Positions 26,251 to 31,217 of a stretch of 33,391 bases of DNA are shown here, piece by piece. Position numbers and translations under genes: made by a program. Every line of letters begins with the position of its first letter. Within the stretch, counting starts at the first letter, position 1. The notes beneath the pieces are model-generated. The model ran no database searches. It was not told where the DNA came from and worked only from the letters and a program-made list of their open reading frames with translations. The DNA is taken from positions 1-33,391 of the forward strand of contig JAHHGY010000039.1 in assembly GCA_019359635.1 (NCBI GenBank), written 5' to 3'. This DNA comes from Chroococcus sp. CMT-3BRIN-NPC107 (lineage in GTDB: Bacteria; Cyanobacteriota; Cyanobacteriia; Cyanobacteriales; Chroococcidiopsidaceae).

Positions 26251-27084
26251 TTAAGGCAACCAAGGGAAAGAACGAAAGTTAGGAGGGCGTTTTTCTAAAA
26301 ATGCTTGTTTGCCCTCAGCGCCTTCTTGGGTCATGTAATACAGCATAGTGGCATTGCCTGCAAGTTCTTGTAAACCTGCTTGTCCATCGCAATCAGCATT
26401 AAAAGCAGACTTCAAACAGCGAATTGCGATCGGGCTTTTTTCTAATATTTCCTTTGCCCATTGGAGGCCTTCTAGTTCTAGTTGTTCCACTGGGACGATG
26501 GTGTTAACTAAACCCATTTCTAGTGCTTGAGTAGCGGTGTACTGGCGGCATAAATACCAAATTTCTCGCGCCTTTTTTTGCCCTACAATCCGCGCCAGAT
26601 AACTAGCGCCAAATCCACCATCAAAACTACCAACTTTAGGGCCTGTTTGCCCAAATATAGCGTTATCGGCAGCAATGGTGAGATCGCAAATTAGATGTAA
26701 AACATGACCGCCACCGATCGCATATCCTGCAACTAAAGCAATAATAACCTTGGGCATAGAGCGAATTAGTCGTTGCAAATCTAAGACATTGAGGCGAGGA
26801 ATACCATCATCATCTATATATCCCGCATCGCCGCGCACGCTTTGATCGCCGCCAGAACAAAAGGCGTATTTGCCATCGGTATGCGGGCCCGCGCCTGTAA
26901 ATAGAACTACACCAATACTTGTATCTTCTCTAGCATCAACAAACGCATCGTAGAGTTCAAACACCGTTTTTGGGCGGAAGGCGTTGCGTTTGTGGGGACG
27001 ATTGATGGTAATTTTAGCAATGCCATCAGTTTTATGATAGAAGATGTCTTCGTAGGTTTTGGCGGTTTCCCAATTTATTGTCAT
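26251..27084 (-). CDS. menB: MenB, 1,4-dihydroxy-2-naphthoyl-CoA synthase
   Basis: Crotonase-fold enzyme that cyclises o-succinylbenzoyl-CoA in phylloquinone/menaquinone synthesis; phylloquinone is the photosystem I secondary acceptor in most cyanobacteria. From ATG 27084 ([20 protein letters not shown]) it has 277 residues, the usual length; a longer frame to 27174 would add 30 residues of poor quality. Motifs: [12 protein letters not shown], the oxyanion region [31 protein letters not shown], and [12 protein letters not shown] with the catalytic aspartate, ending in the typical RSFPWLP. Monocistronic and convergent with the preceding gene. Confidence 0.95.
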
Positions 27085-27186
27085 AGTAGCGGCTTCTTGT
27101 TTTAGCCCCAGAATTTTAACGCGCGTCGTGACTTTGAACCAAAAACCTAAAATTATTGCTCCAACTCTTGACATCTAAAAATACAT

Positions 27187-27204
27187 GTACTACATTTGTA
27201 ATAC
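27187..27204. promoter_or_regulatory. Inverted repeat in the menB / Y-RNA divergent spacer
   Basis: GTACTACA and TGTAATAC flank TT; the half-sites match at 7 of 8 positions. It lies about 105 bases upstream of the menB ATG and 75 upstream of the first RNA gene. Size and symmetry fit a dimeric regulator site; the regulator is unknown. Confidence 0.35.
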
Positions 27205-27208
27205 AAAA

Positions 27209-27246
27209 CGTTTCACCGAGTCATTACAAGTGAATTTGGCGAAACG
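27209..27246. promoter_or_regulatory. Second inverted repeat upstream of the RNA array
   Basis: CGTTTCACC (27209-27217) and GGCGAAACG (27238-27246) are inverse complements at 8 of 9 positions, separated by 20 bases, just upstream of the first -10 box. Operator, upstream element or weak hairpin. Confidence 0.35.
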
Positions 27247-27266: not shown

Positions 27267-27272
27267 TTTAAT
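27267..27272 (+). promoter_or_regulatory. -10 box for Y-like RNA 1
   Basis: TTTAAT ending six bases before the predicted first base at 27278. No convincing -35. Confidence 0.4.
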
Positions 27273-27277
27273 TACTT

Positions 27278-27406
27278 GTGGCAGGTAGCTCAATTGGTAG
27301 AGCGCCAGCTTTTGCCTGAAAAGGACGCAGAATTGAGGGTTATCGCTGAAAATCGAACACCTTAATTCGCCGGGGGTGCGGGTCCAATTCCCGCTCTGCT
27401 ACACCA
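27278..27406 (+). ncRNA. tRNA-like Y RNA candidate 1 (129 nt)
   Basis: Acceptor stem TGGCAGG (27279-27285) pairs with TCTGCTA (27395-27401); an extra G:C pair at 27278/27402 makes eight pairs, and the 3' end ACCA is encoded. D arm: GCTC (27288-27291), loop AATTGGTA, GAGC (27300-27303). T arm: GCGGG (27378-27382), loop TCCAATT, CCCGC (27390-27394). In place of the anticodon loop, the stem CAGC (27306-27309)/GCTG (27345-27348) encloses the 34-nt module at 27312-27345. A variable-arm hairpin CGAA/TTCG follows. There is no usable anticodon, and the Ro60 gene lies downstream, so I read it as a Y RNA rather than a tRNA. Confidence 0.75.
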
Positions 27407-27438
27407 AAAAATCTAAACAACTAAAGAAGTAGGGCTAG

Positions 27439-27444
27439 TATACT
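27439..27444 (+). promoter_or_regulatory. -10 box for Y-like RNA 2
   Basis: TATACT within the perfect palindrome CTAGTATACTAG (27435-27446), ending six bases before the predicted first base at 27451. Confidence 0.5.
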
Positions 27445-27450
27445 AGGTAT

Positions 27451-27593
27451 GTAGCAGGTGGCGAAATCGAAATGGTAAACGCGCTAGTTAAAAGCCTTAC
27501 TTCGACATCTTGCCCGTAAGGGACGTAGAGTTGAGGGTTATCGGTTGCTAGTACCGCAAGGTTTATAGGTTCAAGTCCTACTCTGCTACACCA
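27451..27593 (+). ncRNA. tRNA-like Y RNA candidate 2 (143 nt, leucine-tRNA-like)
   Basis: Acceptor TAGCAGG (27452-27458) pairs fully with TCTGCTA (27582-27588), plus G:C at 27451/27589, and ACCA is encoded at the end. The D arm has only three pairs, GCG (27461-27463) and CGC (27480-27482), with a large loop, as in tRNA-Leu. T arm: TAGG (27566-27569), loop TTCAAGT, CCTA (27577-27580). The anticodon stem CTAG (27484-27487)/CTAG (27548-27551) encloses about 60 nt with the 34-nt module at 27510-27543. A variable-arm hairpin ACC-GCAA-GGT follows. The final 16 bases are identical to those of RNA 1. Confidence 0.75.
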
Positions 27594-27605
27594 AAAATTA
27601 CCTAT

Positions 27606-27734
27606 GGGGTGGGGATTCTAGATATTGTTGAATAGGCAATTTTTAGAGAAAAATTCCTTGTTCTTAACTTGTCTTTTAATACCGAAGAATTGAGGATTAT
27701 CGGTTTATAGGTTCGACTCCTAACCCGCCCCCAA
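27606..27734 (+). ncRNA. tRNA-like Y RNA candidate 3 (degenerate)
   Basis: Terminal stem GGGGTGGG (27606-27613) with CCCGCCCC (27724-27731). D-arm-like hairpin ATTC/GAAT. T arm: ATAGG (27707-27711), loop TTCGACT, CCTAA (27719-27723), with one end mismatch. An extra hairpin AATTTTT/AAAAATT (27638-27655) occupies the 5' part of the central region. The 34-nt module is at 27669-27702 but its hairpin has lost one pair and the tetraloop. No clear -10 is seen, and it starts 12 bases after RNA 2, so it may be co-transcribed or decaying. Confidence 0.55.
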
Positions 27735-27735
27735 A

Positions 27736-27741
27736 TATACA
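27736..27741 (+). promoter_or_regulatory. -10 box for Y-like RNA 4
   Basis: TATACA, eight bases before the predicted first base at 27750. Confidence 0.45.
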
Positions 27742-27749
27742 ACTTTCTT

Positions 27750-27876
27750 GTGATGGGTAGCTCAGTGGTAGAGCGCTAAACATCCTTAATTTATAACCTT
27801 GTCTGCAAAGACCGACTAATTGAGGGTTATCGACTTCTAATCGTAGTGGTCGCAGGTTCGAGTCCTGCTCCATCAC
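27750..27876 (+). ncRNA. tRNA-like Y RNA candidate 4 (127 nt, most canonical arms)
   Basis: Acceptor TGATGGG (27751-27757) with TCCATCA (27869-27875) plus G:C at 27750/27876; no CCA is encoded (ACAT follows). D arm GCTC-AGTGGTA-GAGC (27760-27774). T arm GCAGG-TTCGAGT-CCTGC (27852-27868) with a canonical T loop. The 34-nt module lies at 27799-27832; its hairpin GTCT-GCAA-AGAC has a GNRA loop. The segment ATAACCTT (27793-27800) can pair with AGGGTTAT (27823-27830) to enclose the hairpin. It ends 34 bases before the Ro60 ATG. Confidence 0.78.
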
Positions 27877-27883
27877 ACATATT

Positions 27884-27905
27884 TTGCCTGCAAAGGCTGA
27901 GGATA
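27884..27905 (+). promoter_or_regulatory. Y-module-like hairpin on the Ro60 ribosome binding site
   Basis: TTGCCTGCAAAGGC forms the hairpin GCCT-GCAA-AGGC (27886-27897), followed at once by TGAGGATAC. This matches the first 14 and last positions of the 34-nt module with the middle eight bases missing. The GAGGA (27899-27903) is the Shine-Dalgarno of the Ro60 gene, so any protein binding this element would block translation. Confidence 0.5.
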
Positions 27906-27909
27906 CATT

Positions 27910-29511
27910 ATGAATTACAACTTTTTTACGAAAAAGTCTGGAACTCCCCAAAATCAACCTATTTCTGGACGGGAAACAGAGATGATTAAAGGACGTTCTG
28001 GTGGCTATACTTTTGATGCTGGCATTTGGAGTATGCTGCGTCGCTGCTTGCTAATTGGGACGGCGCAAAGCACCTACTACGCTGGTAAGAAAGAATTAAC
28101 CGATGACTTTGCAAATGTACTGGTAAGTGCGATCGCATCTAACCCCACCCGTGTAGCCGAAGAAATTGTCTATGCTAGTGATGGTCGCTCTATCAATAAC
28201 AGCGCTCCTATTTTGGCTTTGGTGCTGCTCTCGATGGGCGAAAGCAAAGAAGCAAAGCAAGGGTTTCAGGAAATATTTTCTACAGTTATTCGTACTGGTA
28301 GCCATTTCTATGAATGGTTGAGCTATACCAAATCTATGCGCGGCTTTGGTAAAGTGGTGCGAGAATCGGGCAAACATTGGTTATCGCGGGAAGATGTCAA
28401 ACGCTTGGCTTACCAGCTATTGAAGTATCAACAGCGTCAAGGCTTTACTCACCGAGATGCTTTGCGATTATTTCACGTCAAGCCACCCACCGAAGAACAC
28501 CGTCAGTTGTTTGAGTGGGTAGTGAAAGGGTGGCAAGAATTGCCTAAAGAAATTCCTACACCCGCTCTTGCTCAAATTTGGTGGTATGAATGGCTGAAGC
28601 GCAACCCCGAAGAAACTTCTCAAGCTATTTCTCAAGGACACTTGACTCATGAAATGGTGGCTCCCGTAGGCAAAATGGATAAAGCTGCATGGCAATTACT
28701 GTTTGCAGAAATGCCCATCGGCGCAATGTTGCGTAACTTAGGCTCGTTAACTCAATTAGATGTATTGCGAACCGATGAACGCGCTAACTTAAAGCGTCTA
28801 GAAGCAACATTAAATAGTAAAGAACGTTTGCGAAGTGGACGCATTCATCCTATTGATGTTCTTAAAGCGCTGAAAACCTACAAATCTGGGGGACAACTCG
28901 GACGCAGCCAAAAAACTTGGCAACCCGTACCTCGAATTGTAGACATTTTAGAAAAGGCGTTAGAAATGTCTTTTGAGGTTGTAAAACCCACAGGTCAAGT
29001 GTTTATGCACGCGGTAGACGTTTCCGGTTCAATGTCTGGTCAAGTAGTAGGTTCTGTTGGTTTGAGTTGCTGCGAGATTGCGACAGCGATGGCTTTGGTG
29101 ACAGCTAAAGCGGAGAAAAACTACGAAATTCGCGGTTTTGCTACCGACTTTCGTTATCTAGGAATTACCGCCACAGATACGTTTAGTTCGGCGCTGAAGA
29201 AGTCTAGCAATCAAAACTTTGGGGGAACAGATGCGTCTGTTGCTTACGACTGGATGATTAAAAACAAGTTCAAAGCCGATGTAATTTGCTTTTGGACTGA
29301 CTCGGAAAGTTGGGCGGGAAATAAGCACCCCTCGGAAGCTTTAGCGCAGTACCGTAAGAAAATCAACCCAGACATCAAAGCGGTGTATATTACCCTTGCA
29401 CCTTACCAATTAACTTTGGTAGATCCAACCGATCCTTTGTCTTGGGATATGGGAGGTTTCGATCCGGGAATCCCTCGCATTATTCAAATGCTGGCGAGTG
29501 ATGAGCTATAG
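27910..29511 (+). CDS. rsr: Ro60 ortholog (Rsr), TROVE plus von Willebrand A domain
   Basis: 533-residue ring-shaped RNA-binding protein. Bacterial Ro60 proteins bind Y RNAs and can tether to polynucleotide phosphorylase for structured-RNA decay, as shown in Deinococcus. The N-terminal TROVE/HEAT-repeat domain spans about 20-350, with YTFDAGIWSMLRRCLLIGT, GGRS-like region DGRSINNSAPILALVLLS and TKSMRGFGKVVRESGKHW. The C-terminal vWA domain has an intact metal site DxSxS (D370, S372, S374 in DVSGSMSG), T440 and D464. GAGGA lies six bases before ATG 27910. It is bracketed by five tRNA-like RNAs, so function in a Ro-Y RNA particle is strongly suggested. Its leader carries a module-like hairpin. 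Confidence 0.93.
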   Translation: MNYNFFTKKSGTPQNQPISGRETEMIKGRSGGYTFDAGIWSMLRRCLLIGTAQSTYYAGKKELTDDFANVLVSAIASNPTRVAEEIVYASDGRSINNSAPILALVLLSMGESKEAKQGFQEIFSTVIRTGSHFYEWLSYTKSMRGFGKVVRESGKHWLSREDVKRLAYQLLKYQQRQGFTHRDALRLFHVKPPTEEHRQLFEWVVKGWQELPKEIPTPALAQIWWYEWLKRNPEETSQAISQGHLTHEMVAPVGKMDKAAWQLLFAEMPIGAMLRNLGSLTQLDVLRTDERANLKRLEATLNSKERLRSGRIHPIDVLKALKTYKSGGQLGRSQKTWQPVPRIVDILEKALEMSFEVVKPTGQVFMHAVDVSGSMSGQVVGSVGLSCCEIATAMALVTAKAEKNYEIRGFATDFRYLGITATDTFSSALKKSSNQNFGGTDASVAYDWMIKNKFKADVICFWTDSESWAGNKHPSEALAQYRKKINPDIKAVYITLAPYQLTLVDPTDPLSWDMGGFDPGIPRIIQMLASDEL

Positions 29512-29512
29512 T
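29507..29512 (+). promoter_or_regulatory. -10 box for Y-like RNA 5, overlapping the Ro60 stop
   Basis: TATAGT, whose TAG at 29509-29511 is the Ro60 stop codon, ends six bases before the predicted first base at 29519. Confidence 0.45.
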
Positions 29513-29518
29513 CGGTTT

Positions 29519-29628
29519 GTAGCGGGAAATCCTCGTTCAATTATTGCCCTTACGGGACGAAGAATGTAGGGTTATCGATAACTCCCACATTTGGGGGTTT
29601 GCGGGTGTAAAACCTCCACTCCCGCTAC
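29519..29628 (+). ncRNA. Y RNA candidate 5 (110 nt, reduced tRNA likeness)
   Basis: Nine perfect terminal pairs: GTAGCGGGA (29519-29527) with TCCCGCTAC (29620-29628). The 34-nt module is at 29544-29577 with hairpin CCC-TTAC-GGG. A second hairpin follows, in which GGGTTA can pair with TAAC and TCCC downstream, then CCC/GGG around TTTGGGGG. A T-arm-like element with loop TGTAAAA is partly paired; no D arm is visible. It starts seven bases after the Ro60 stop and is the least tRNA-like copy, closest in form to a simple Y RNA. Confidence 0.65.
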
Positions 29629-29661
29629 TTTAATTAATGCGATCGCACTCAATGCTTAAAG

Positions 29662-29793: not shown

Positions 29794-29994
29794 ATGATCT
29801 ATCCAAATCCTGGTCCCTTACCCGAACCAAATCCCCAGCCACCCCTACCAGAACCTATTCCTGAACCATCTCCCGATCCCTTACCAAGTCCAATTCCCCA
29901 ACCCGTTCCCGCACCCATTCCTGAACCTGTACCTGCGCCGATTCCGCAGCCAGTACCTGCACCAATACCCCAAACAATTCCTACACCAGTTTAA
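29794..29994 (+). CDS. Proline-rich repeat protein, 66 residues (uncertain)
   Basis: ATG 29794 to TAA 29992-29994. About every second residue is proline in a PxP pattern ([20 protein letters not shown] and on). The C-terminal half contains three copies of an eight-residue unit IPQPVPAP or IPEPVPAP, encoded by 24-bp repeats. It has no signal peptide or membrane segment. Such sequence forms an extended polyproline-like rod, as in linkers; as an isolated protein it is unusual. No good Shine-Dalgarno precedes it. It could be the remnant of a longer protein, or a non-coding repeat that happens to be open. Confidence 0.45.
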
Positions 29995-30125
29995 AAGCTG
30001 GGCGATCGCACCTGGTTAGTTTCGGCAAAGTGCGAAGCCCTGCGTGCGCGCCAGCGCGATCGCTCAAAATCATAGTGGCTTACACTTTTGATATCCTGAC
30101 AATAGTACAGAAAAGAAAAAGTGTT

Positions 30126-31217
30126 ATGCTCAGAGCCGGAATTGTTGGACTACCTAACGTCGGAAAATCTACCTTATTTAACGCATTGGTTGCCAATGCC
30201 AAGGCGGAAGCTGCCAACTTCCCATTCTGCACGATTGAACCGAATGTAGGGATTGTATCGGTTCCCGATCAGCGATTACAAGTTTTAGCAGATATTTCTA
30301 AGTCAGAGCAAATTGTCCCGACGCGGATAGAGTTTGTTGATATTGCTGGATTAGTCAAAGGTGCAAGTCAAGGAGAAGGGTTAGGCAATAAATTTTTGTC
30401 TCACATCCGCGAAGTAGATGCGATCGTTCATGTAGTACGGTGTTTTGATAACGATGATATTATTCATGTTGCAGGCTCGGTAGATCCGGCTAGAGATATT
30501 GAAATTATCAATTTAGAGTTGTCTTTAGCCGATTTAGACCAAATCGATCGTAAAAGCGATCGCACTCGCAAGCAAGCACGATCTAGTAAAGATGCACAAG
30601 CAGAGTTAGTAGTATTAGAAAAAGTGAGTGCGGCTTTAAATGAAGGCAAACCCGCGCGTCAACTTAATTTAACCGAAGAAGAATTAGGAGCGATTAAAGA
30701 TTTAGGGTTGCTAACCAATAAACCAATTATTTATGCAGCTAATGTATCGGAAGAAGAACTAGCAACAGGTAACAAGTGGGTAGAACAAGTAAGAGAAATT
30801 GCTGCTCAAGAAAAGGCTCAAGTTGTAATAGTTTCGGCGCAAGTAGAAGCAGAATTAGTAGAACTACCTGCTGAAGATAGAGCGGATTTTCTAGCATCGT
30901 TAGGTGTAGAAGAAGGCGGTTTAAAATCTTTAATTCGCGCCACTTACGAACTTTTAGGATTGCGTACCTATTTCACCGCCGGGCCAAAAGAAACTCGTGC
31001 TTGGACTATCAACGCCGGAATGTTTGCACCCCAAGCTGCCGGAGTAATTCACTCAGATTTTGAGCGGGGGTTTATTCGGGCAGAAACGGTAGCTTATAAA
31101 GATTTAGTAGCAACTAAATCGATGGGTGCAGCAAAAGAAAAAGGCTTAGTTCGCAGTGAAGGTAAAGAGTACATTGTACAAGAAGGCGATGTATTGCTAT
31201 TTAGATTCAATGTTTAG
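30126..31217 (+). CDS. ychF: YchF/OLA1-type GTP/ATP-binding protein
   Basis: 363-residue P-loop protein of the Obg-related YchF family, which binds ribosomes and prefers ATP over GTP in characterised members. Walker A is GLPNVGKST at 8-16; the switch region carries [11 protein letters not shown], the G3 [10 protein letters not shown], and the NxxE-type G4 variant lies in [10 protein letters not shown] coiled-coil insert is followed by the TGS domain with [19 protein letters not shown] sequence and a final VLLFRFNV. I start at ATG 30126, which gives exactly the family length; an upstream TTG at 30030 would add 32 residues from a HIP1-rich spacer. A terminator follows. Confidence 0.96.

What the first reader, a model, noticed from the sequence alone, without database searches (positions are those of the whole stretch)
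27267..29628. Ro60 gene embedded in an array of five tRNA-like Y RNA genes
Four RNA genes lie upstream and one downstream of an intact Ro60 gene. Bacterial Y RNAs near Ro60 that contain tRNA-like domains are known, but five copies at one locus, several with complete acceptor stem, D arm, T arm and even encoded CCA, is unusual. An array of adaptors could give Ro60 a choice of partners or target it to tRNA-processing enzymes.
Basis: partly seen in the sequence, partly recalled or inferred. Interest (0 to 1): 0.93.

Follow-up and report, generated by a model that had tools for sequence, protein, structure and literature searches.

The report
tRNA-bodied Y RNA array beside Ro60
Beside the Ro60 gene of this cyanobacterium lie five sequences shaped like RNA genes, at least three of them whole transfer-RNA bodies whose anticodon arm is replaced by a stem that likely binds Ro60, and most Ro60 genes examined in related cyanobacteria have such elements too, so these RNAs would act as tRNA-shaped handles for Ro60, one of them predicted to be loadable with alanine.

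Summary
The five elements are real: Y1 (27278-27406), Y2 (27451-27593), Y3 (27606-27734) and Y4 (27750-27877) precede an intact Ro60 gene (27910-29511); Y5 (29519-29629) follows. Y1, Y2 and Y4 have acceptor stem (8 bp), D arm and T arm, with a conserved Y domain in place of the anticodon arm; Y3 and Y5 are degenerate. Y1 and Y2 encode ACCA; 0 of 28 parsed tRNA genes here encode CCA. Such elements are the rule: in 100 genomes of the order, 21 of 21 with full-length or split Ro60 have 1 to 11 nearby. The surprise is topology. Known YrlA Y RNAs are circularly permuted tRNA mimics, and 7 of 10 non-cyanobacterial Ro60 loci fetched show that form. The cyanobacterial ones are unpermuted: acceptor strands pair within elements (119 of 122; across neighbours 38 of 61). 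Rfam's YrlA model fits, below its cut-off, the Y3/Y4 junction, so tandem copies could bridge the two forms. Y1 has G3:U70, A73 and CCA, the alanine identity set of tmRNA; its link with CCA across relatives is not secured against shared ancestry. Expression, Ro60 binding and charging are untested; the founding papers could not be read.

The parts
27168..27196 (+). promoter-like site (TTGACA, 17-nt spacer, TACATT) upstream of Y1
   Evidence: 10 of 12 consensus positions; 6 sites found in the region against a shuffle mean of 5.2, so weak
27278..27406 (+). Y1: acceptor 27278-27285/27395-27402 (G3 at 27280, U70 at 27400), D arm 27288-27303, Y domain of class B, T arm 27378-27394, A73 27403, encoded CCA 27404-27406
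   Evidence: RF00005 42.9 bits; 65.3 bits
27330..27345 (+). conserved Y core GAATTGAGGGTTATCG of Y1
27451..27593 (+). Y2: acceptor 27451-27458/27582-27589 (A3:U70), D arm that resembles tRNA-Leu (comparison from memory), class A Y domain, T arm 27565-27581, A73 27590, encoded CCA 27591-27593
   Evidence: (87.6 bits)
27606..27734 (+). Y3: acceptor-like GGGGTGGG/CCCGCCCC (27606-27613/27724-27731), T arm 27707-27723, degenerate 5' half
   Evidence: (63.5 bits)
27678..27808 (+). hit of Rfam YrlA (RF02553) spanning the 3' half of Y3 and the 5' half of Y4; below gathering
   Evidence: 30.6 bits, gathering 69, E 4.8e-4
27750..27877 (+). Y4: acceptor 27750-27757/27869-27876 (G3:C70), D arm 27760-27774, class A Y domain, T arm 27852-27868, A73 27877, no encoded CCA
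   Evidence: 44.0 bits; 121.7 bits
27910..29511 (+). Ro60/Rsr gene, 533 aa, TROVE plus vWA
29519..29629 (+). Y5: acceptor-like GTAGCGGG/CCCGCTAC (29519-29526/29621-29628), Y core, no D arm, degenerate T arm
   Evidence: fold z -5.26; 43.0 bits, matched from 29494

Best explanation
The locus carries an array of five Y-RNA-like elements, at least three of them with an unpermuted tRNA layout, in which a domain that likely binds Ro60 stands where the anticodon arm should be. Shown from sequence: in Y1, Y2 and Y4 the acceptor, D and T arms stand in normal tRNA order and the Y domain sits between D and T arm. Inferred: the array is transcribed, probably together with Ro60, and cut out like a tRNA operon (RNase P at the 5' end; CCA encoded in Y1 and Y2, trimmed and added for the others). 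Inferred: the Y stem docks on Ro60 and the exposed tRNA body serves as handle for tRNA-binding partners and for PNPase (gene present in this genome), so that different bodies give one Ro60 ring different partners in stress-linked RNA quality control. Inferred, least certain: Y1-type members, with G3:U70, A73 and CCA, are substrates of alanyl-tRNA synthetase, as tmRNA is.
For: Unconstrained folding of 37 class A elements returns acceptor, D stem, Y stem, apical hairpin and T stem; 97.8% of cells paired, 19 of 26 pairs with changes on both sides, 0 of 500 shuffles reach this, slid versions at most 52.7% paired. Rows had been selected on acceptor and T-arm pairing, T loop and Y strands; the D stem (3 of 3 pairs) and apical hairpin (3 of 3) were not, and also change on both sides. 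Register test without an acceptor criterion: at least 7 of 8 pairs within elements in 119 of 122, across neighbours 38 of 61. tRNA core bases U8, A14, G18, G19, A58 invariant or nearly so (numbering from tRNA knowledge; TTC of the T loop was a selection criterion and does not count). Model hits of at least 54 bits and 105 nt lie beside Ro60 in 21 of 21 genomes with full-length or split Ro60, in 0 of 2 with Ro60 remnants, and in 1 of 77 without (a decayed remnant) (thresholds set after seeing the list). PNPase gene at C63. In 8-bp elements G3:U70 is in 41 of 62 with encoded CCA against 6 of 81 without; A73 in 59 of the 62. Own genome: G3:U70 only in the 3 tRNA-Ala among 28 parsed tRNAs, encoded CCA in 0 of 28. 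Erythromycin, a translation inhibitor, raised TROVE-gene mRNA dramatically in Chlorogloeopsis fritschii (PMC6424891, passage).
Against: No transcript, Ro60-binding or charging data. RF02553 is not met at its gathering score, although it is not met by the permuted loci examined here either. In a narrower register script 3 of 9 elements of the largest array (L152) found no acceptor partner within the element, and 4 of 10 cyanobacterial junctions could pair at 8 bp across. Only 34 of 74 loci with a parsed element have an alanine-type element, so charging cannot be a general need. The CCA/G3:U70 link holds within loci (permutation p 5e-5) but is not secured against relatedness: cluster-level p 0.05-0.29; on supported branches of an unresolved tree only 5 independent pairs, on average 1.1 going the same way, 0.0 the other, 3.9 not differing. 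The 8-bp acceptor, as in tRNA-Sec, could weaken EF-Tu binding (established knowledge).
Confidence: 0.72

Rival explanations
1. The real transcripts are permuted YrlA RNAs read across neighbours: 3' half of one element, closed acceptor, 5' half of the next.
For: RF02553 aligns to the Y3/Y4 junction at 30.6 bits and to junctions in relatives, up to 52.1 bits in L026, all below gathering; 38 of 61 neighbour junctions could pair at 7 or more of 8 positions (68 of 89 in a set chosen on acceptor pairing).
Against: Within-element pairing is much better (119 of 122); in the 62 elements of the 8bp+CCA class CCA follows the within-element acceptor; 20 loci have one parsed element only, though partners may be missed; Y3/Y4 acceptors do not pair across.
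Confidence: 0.06
2. They are tRNA genes with an insert that is spliced out, giving working tRNAs.
For: Rfam tRNA aligns with a long insert at the anticodon arm, and the flanks of Y4 can form a few pairs there.
Against: The insert is the most conserved part and has compensated pairs in its hairpin, and it is linked to Ro60; ARAGORN finds no tRNA.
Confidence: 0.04
3. They are tRNA decoys that soak up anticodon nucleases or tRNA enzymes, with Ro60 only stabilising them.
For: Hughes 2020 (PMC7790460, passages) names YrlA as a possible competitive inhibitor of such a nuclease; TROVE and RtcB genes were both among the top-raised genes in one far-red coculture (PMC11423583, passage).
Against: The anticodon loop, the site cut by such nucleases, is the part that is replaced.
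Confidence: 0.12
4. The array is mostly duplication noise: one or two members bind Ro60, the rest are decaying copies.
For: Y3 and Y5 are degenerate; copy number varies from 1 to 8 parsed per locus.
Against: Divergent paralogues keep compensated stems; distinct D-arm and variable-region types recur in several genera.
Confidence: 0.15

Closest known systems
YrlA Y RNA (Rfam RF02553; Salmonella YrlA structure 6CU1)
   Same: Next to Ro60; Ro60-stem strands, T arm, D arm and acceptor helix align piece by piece
   Different: YrlA is circularly permuted relative to tRNA (PMC11472068 passages), with 5' and 3' ends paired in the Rsr-binding stem (PMC8394870 passages); here the ends are at an open acceptor stem, with CCA in some. 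RF02553 gathering score not reached
tmRNA (RF00023)
   Same: tRNA body with G3:U70, A73 and CCA, anticodon arm replaced by something else (Y1-type)
   Different: No tmRNA call by ARAGORN or Rfam at gathering; 8-bp acceptor; partner is Ro60, not SmpB (recalled)
tRNA (RF00005)
   Same: Y1 and Y4 pass the gathering score
   Different: No anticodon arm; 8-bp acceptor; CCA encoded in Y1 and Y2 although 0 of 28 parsed tRNA genes of this genome encode it
Ro60-Y RNA-PNPase particle (RYPER) of Deinococcus radiodurans
   Same: Ro60 of the Rsr type, Y-RNA-like elements, PNPase gene in the genome
   Different: Assembly not tested here; Y RNAs of another topology and in an array

Membership tests
Ro60/Rsr proteins | TROVE and Ro60-type vWA domains; full-length similarity to Rsr | tested here: met
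   (residues 12-531 of 533 align to 2nvo)
bacterial Y RNAs | encoded beside Ro60 | tested here: met
bacterial Y RNAs | tRNA-like domain with D and T arms | tested here: met
   for Y1, Y2, Y4; not for Y5
bacterial Y RNAs | binds Ro60 | not testable with these tools
   inferred from alignment of the Y strands to RF02553
YrlA (RF02553) | score over the family's gathering cut-off | tested here: not met
   30.6 against 69 bits, and across a junction; none of 16 relatives over the cut-off; the permuted phage, actinobacterial and alphaproteobacterial loci also stay below it (36-51 bits)
YrlA (RF02553) | permuted order with closed acceptor hairpin | tested here: not met
   acceptor pairs within elements, 119 of 122
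tRNA | RF00005 gathering score | tested here: met
   Y1, Y4; not Y2, Y3, Y5
tRNA | anticodon arm | tested here: not met
   replaced by Y domain; ARAGORN 0
tmRNA | alanine identity G3:U70, A73, CCA | tested here: met
   Y1 only
tmRNA | match to the tmRNA family, with tag-encoding part | tested here: not met
   no tmRNA by ARAGORN or Rfam at gathering; one relative element (L026) has 26.6 bits, below gathering 47
alanine acceptor RNA | charged by AlaRS | not testable with these tools
   needs biochemistry

The most novel reading that the evidence does not exclude
Cyanobacteria have a second alanylated non-tRNA besides tmRNA: CCA-bearing, G3:U70 Y RNAs that carry Ro60 in place of an anticodon arm, so that alanyl-tRNA synthetase, and perhaps EF-Tu, recognise the Ro60 particle and link it to stalled translation. 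The tandem arrays are also the living intermediate through which an unpermuted tRNA-type Y RNA and the permuted YrlA turned into one another.
Probability: 0.27. Interest if true: 0.93.

Novelty: new variant of a known kind. Interest (0 to 1): 0.74.

Why it matters
The origin of the permuted, tRNA-mimicking bacterial Y RNA is, as far as I know, unsettled. Cyanobacterial Ro60 loci with the same parts in normal tRNA order, in tandem copies whose junctions resemble YrlA, give a concrete route and a way to test it. It also makes function testable: elements that look like finished tRNA ends, two with encoded CCA in a genome whose parsed tRNA genes lack it, can be checked for end processing, modification and aminoacylation in culturable relatives (Picosynechococcus PCC 7002, Chlorogloeopsis, Nostoc). 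If the alanine set is used, Ro60 would be tied to translation in a way that I did not find in the passages I could read.

Tried and rejected
Rfam at gathering and ARAGORN alone see two of five elements, or none. MAFFT of the five window elements alone is not informative, and single-sequence minimum-energy folds miss the tRNA layout of Y2. An attempt to show that the CCA/G3:U70 link is independent of relatedness failed for lack of power: clusters chain together, and the 133-row tree has 14 starred of 127 inner branches. My parser is loose: its hit rate at control positions is 11-13%, and of the 184 parsed elements three (L015 5172, L028 2342, L051 820) look false on reading; they stayed in the counts and fall out of the 133-row set by its filters. 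The same parser missed Y5 and found no partner at 17 core sites, some of which may be chance. For the class A alignment I gave 37 of 38 picked rows (of 91 candidates; L036 left out); for class B 19 rows, of which 18 of the 19 picked (of 29 candidates), L026 exchanged for a second L007 element. The search for encoded CCA in 60 genomes of the order has background near the signal in many genomes and shows that some relatives carry tRNA clusters with CCA; I rest the CCA contrast on the own genome only (28 parsed of 30 called of 35 tRNA hits there). Counts for one search were read by eye from its printed list, whose tail is cut near 44 bits; the thresholds (54 bits, 105 nt) were set after seeing it; only 34 candidates per genome were scored, so absence in genomes without Ro60 is a weak statement. 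The covariance model R2 also matches permuted loci (L150 50.0 bits, L004 up to 40.1 bits) about as well as RF02553 does (51.0 and 41.2 bits), so model scores alone do not tell the two orders apart; the register test does. Literature: searches listed no paper whose title or abstract is about cyanobacterial Y RNA arrays, unpermuted Y RNAs or Y RNA aminoacylation; the founding papers (Chen 2013, Chen 2014, Wang 2018, Sim and Wolin 2018, Sim 2020) are not held and may already describe part of this.
Full report
What is there. The window is contig C46 of a cyanobacterial genome of 3.44 Mb in 100 contigs, 88% complete (cyanobacterial from the Ro60 relatives, and GUN4). An intact Ro60 gene (27910-29511; TROVE and vWA_Ro60; best solved match D. 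radiodurans Rsr 2nvo, E 2.9e-71) lies between an enoyl-CoA hydratase-like gene (26251-27174, minus strand) and a YchF-type GTPase gene (30030-31217). Four elements precede Ro60 within 640 bases; the fifth begins 8 bases downstream of the last base of its stop codon.

Anatomy. Y1, Y2 and Y4 are tRNA bodies: 8-bp acceptor stem, U8 and a purine, D arm, T arm, A73; Y1 and Y2 also encode CCA. The Y domain stands between D arm and T arm. It has two forms. In class A (Y2, Y4) a strand like CCTTAATT, a hairpin of the TTGCC...GGCCGA type and the strand GAATTGAGGGTTATCG follow one another. In class B (Y1) the hairpin comes first, then GAATTGAGGGTTATCG, a loop and CCTTAATTC, so the two stem strands have swapped order. 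All 26 class B rows fall in one supported set of 28 rows (SH-aLRT 97; the other two are class A). Y3 is degenerate in its 5' half. Y5 lacks a D arm.

Is it real structure? On 37 class A elements RNAalifold, without guidance, returns acceptor, D, Y, apical and T helices. 97.8% of cells pair, 19 of 26 pairs have changes on both sides, no shuffle of 500 reaches this, and slid versions drop to 44-53%. The rows had been picked with acceptor, T arm, T loop and Y strands readable, so those parts are favoured; the D stem (3 of 3 pairs) and the apical hairpin (3 of 3 pairs) were not selected on and still change on both sides. The basal Y helix (4 pairs) has no both-sided change and rests on conservation. 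On 19 class B elements 10 of 28 pairs have both-sided changes. Single sequences fold only modestly better than shuffles for Y1-Y4 (z -1.6 to -2.8) and clearly for Y5 (-5.26).

Distribution. A scan of named species genomes gave 175 confirmed relatives of Ro60, of which the best 80 were kept. In these and the window 74 of 81 loci have at least one parsed element: 20 loci have 1, 21 have 2, 18 have 3, 11 have 4, and 4 have 5 to 8 (three parsed elements look false on reading). Aliterella atlantica (L007) has 8. In 100 genomes of the order 23 have a Ro60 match. Of these, 21 are full length or split, and 21 of 21 have at least one long model hit (54 bits or more, 105 nt or more) within about 3.3 kb on the same strand, up to 11 in G044; 0 of 2 with remnants; 1 of 77 without Ro60. 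The thresholds were set after seeing the list, and only 34 candidates per genome were scored. The one exception, G084, holds remains of a class B and a class A element and no Ro60. Listed hits away from Ro60 with tRNA-like spans (77-90 nt) reach at most 53.5 bits; one long one (G041, 170 nt) has 45.0 bits and was not followed. Picosynechococcus PCC 7002 has three such elements upstream of its plasmid Ro60 gene, none in the PLSDB gene table, which omits RNA genes.

Topology against the known family. YrlA is a circularly permuted tRNA mimic (PMC11472068 passages) whose 5' and 3' ends pair in the Rsr-binding stem (PMC8394870 passages). Rfam's YrlA model hits the window only across the Y3/Y4 junction: Y3's core strand and T arm, then Y4's D arm and Y strand (30.6 bits, gathering 69). 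It does the same in other arrays, up to 52.1 bits in L026. The register was tested directly. With elements found by core, D arm and T arm only, acceptor strands pair at 7 or more of 8 positions within the element in 119 of 122, and between neighbours in 38 of 61. A second script on five cyanobacterial loci found a helix of 7-8 bp within the element in 18 of 21 cases (the 3 failures in L152) and of 8 bp across in 4 of 10. Outside cyanobacteria ten Ro60 loci were fetched (seven viral, Bosea, Rhizobium, Nonomuraea). In seven of them (L004, L141-L144, L148, L150) an acceptor closes as a hairpin between a T arm and the next D arm (L142 and the second L150 element by eye). In L004 this held at 5 of 6 junctions, with 0 of 4 within-element helices over 5 bp; the first L150 element gave 8 bp across, and a 6-bp match within the neighbouring one. 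L145, L146 and L149 had no RF02553 hit at the E-values used and were not put through the script. In Nonomuraea one closing loop reads CCACCA, which could be a relic of a CCA end (one of twelve stretches printed). So the same parts occur in two circular orders, and tandem copies supply both at once: losing the outer halves of two neighbours would turn one form into the other. The direction of change is not shown. Scores of the covariance models do not separate the two orders by themselves (R2 50.0 and RF02553 51.0 bits in L150).

Alanine identity. In the 62 elements with 8-bp acceptor and encoded CCA, the third pair is G:U in 41, A:U in 12 and G:C in 9, and A73 is present in 59; in 81 without CCA it is G:U in 6 (Fisher p 4e-14 without regard to relatedness). 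In the 54 of the 62 with a canonical T loop, G:U per acceptor position is 0, 0, 37, 0, 1, 3, 0, 23; in the 67 of the 81 it is 8, 1, 6, 0, 4, 4, 1, 19. In this genome G3:U70 marks only the three tRNA-Ala among 28 parsed tRNAs, and 0 of the 28 encode CCA. Against this: 40 of 74 loci lack an alanine-type element, and the link with CCA is not secured against shared ancestry. That G3:U70, A73 and CCA are the alanine identity set is established knowledge; that the tmRNA tRNA-like domain is charged with alanine is also stated in PMC8394870.

Mechanism. Committed reading: a tRNA-like operon gives a set of tRNA-shaped RNAs; Ro60 takes the Y stem; the tRNA body is the handle for tRNA enzymes and, as Y RNA does in D. 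radiodurans, for PNPase (PMC7790460 and PMC8058203 passages). PNPase and RtcB genes are present elsewhere in this genome. A hint of a link to translation stress: the TROVE gene rose dramatically after erythromycin in Chlorogloeopsis fritschii PCC 9212, 'for unknown reasons' in the authors' words (PMC6424891, passages). Its near relative PCC 6912, in this set as L049, has a class B element with G3:U70, A73 and CCA (closeness of the two strains is from memory). Every functional step is inferred.

Novelty. tRNA-like Y RNAs next to Ro60 are a known kind of thing; unpermuted, CCA-bearing members beside cyanobacterial Ro60 genes are not the subject of any paper that the searches listed. The key papers are not held, so the claim is limited.

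Noticed in passing
elements with core at L005 542, L006 2750, L007 2443: The same GC-rich hairpin of about 50 nt (CTCTGTGGAAGGAAAC.TTCCCCACAGAC) sits inside the Y domain of Y elements in three cyanobacteria, in two element types, as if a small palindromic repeat inserts into Y RNAs.
   Followed up: no
L004 9298-9554 and L141 4974-5395: tmRNA genes lie within about 4 kb downstream of Ro60 in an uncultivated viral contig and in Gordonia phage Sixama.
   Followed up: no
L150 2766-2787: Nonomuraea permuted YrlA-type element: acceptor hairpin CAGGCCGG/CCGGCCTG closed by the loop CCACCA, possibly a CCA relic.
   Followed up: partly
window 27209-27246: Inverted repeat with arms CGTTTCACC and GGCGAAACG between the promoter-like site and Y1; a possible operator (read by eye).
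   Followed up: no
window 29794-29994: Small proline-rich reading frame with PEP/PAPIP-type repeats downstream of Y5 (read by eye).
   Followed up: no
L152 (G044:C426:18501-21698): Largest array seen: 11 model hits over 3.2 kb upstream of Ro60.
   Followed up: partly
L151 3600-4100: Remains of a class B and a class A element in a genome (G084) without a Ro60 match: likely remnants after loss of Ro60.
   Followed up: partly
upstream elements nearest Ro60 in Nostocaceae, e.g. L009 2904, L026 2904: The element next to Ro60 lacks encoded CCA and ends CCTGCCAC-CTT; it can be read with an 8-bp acceptor or as a 7-bp acceptor with a G-1:C73 pair like tRNA-His (comparison from memory).
   Followed up: no
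G041:C1:3487688-3487857: A long-span hit of model R2 (45.0 bits) in a genome without a Ro60 match; may be chance.
   Followed up: no
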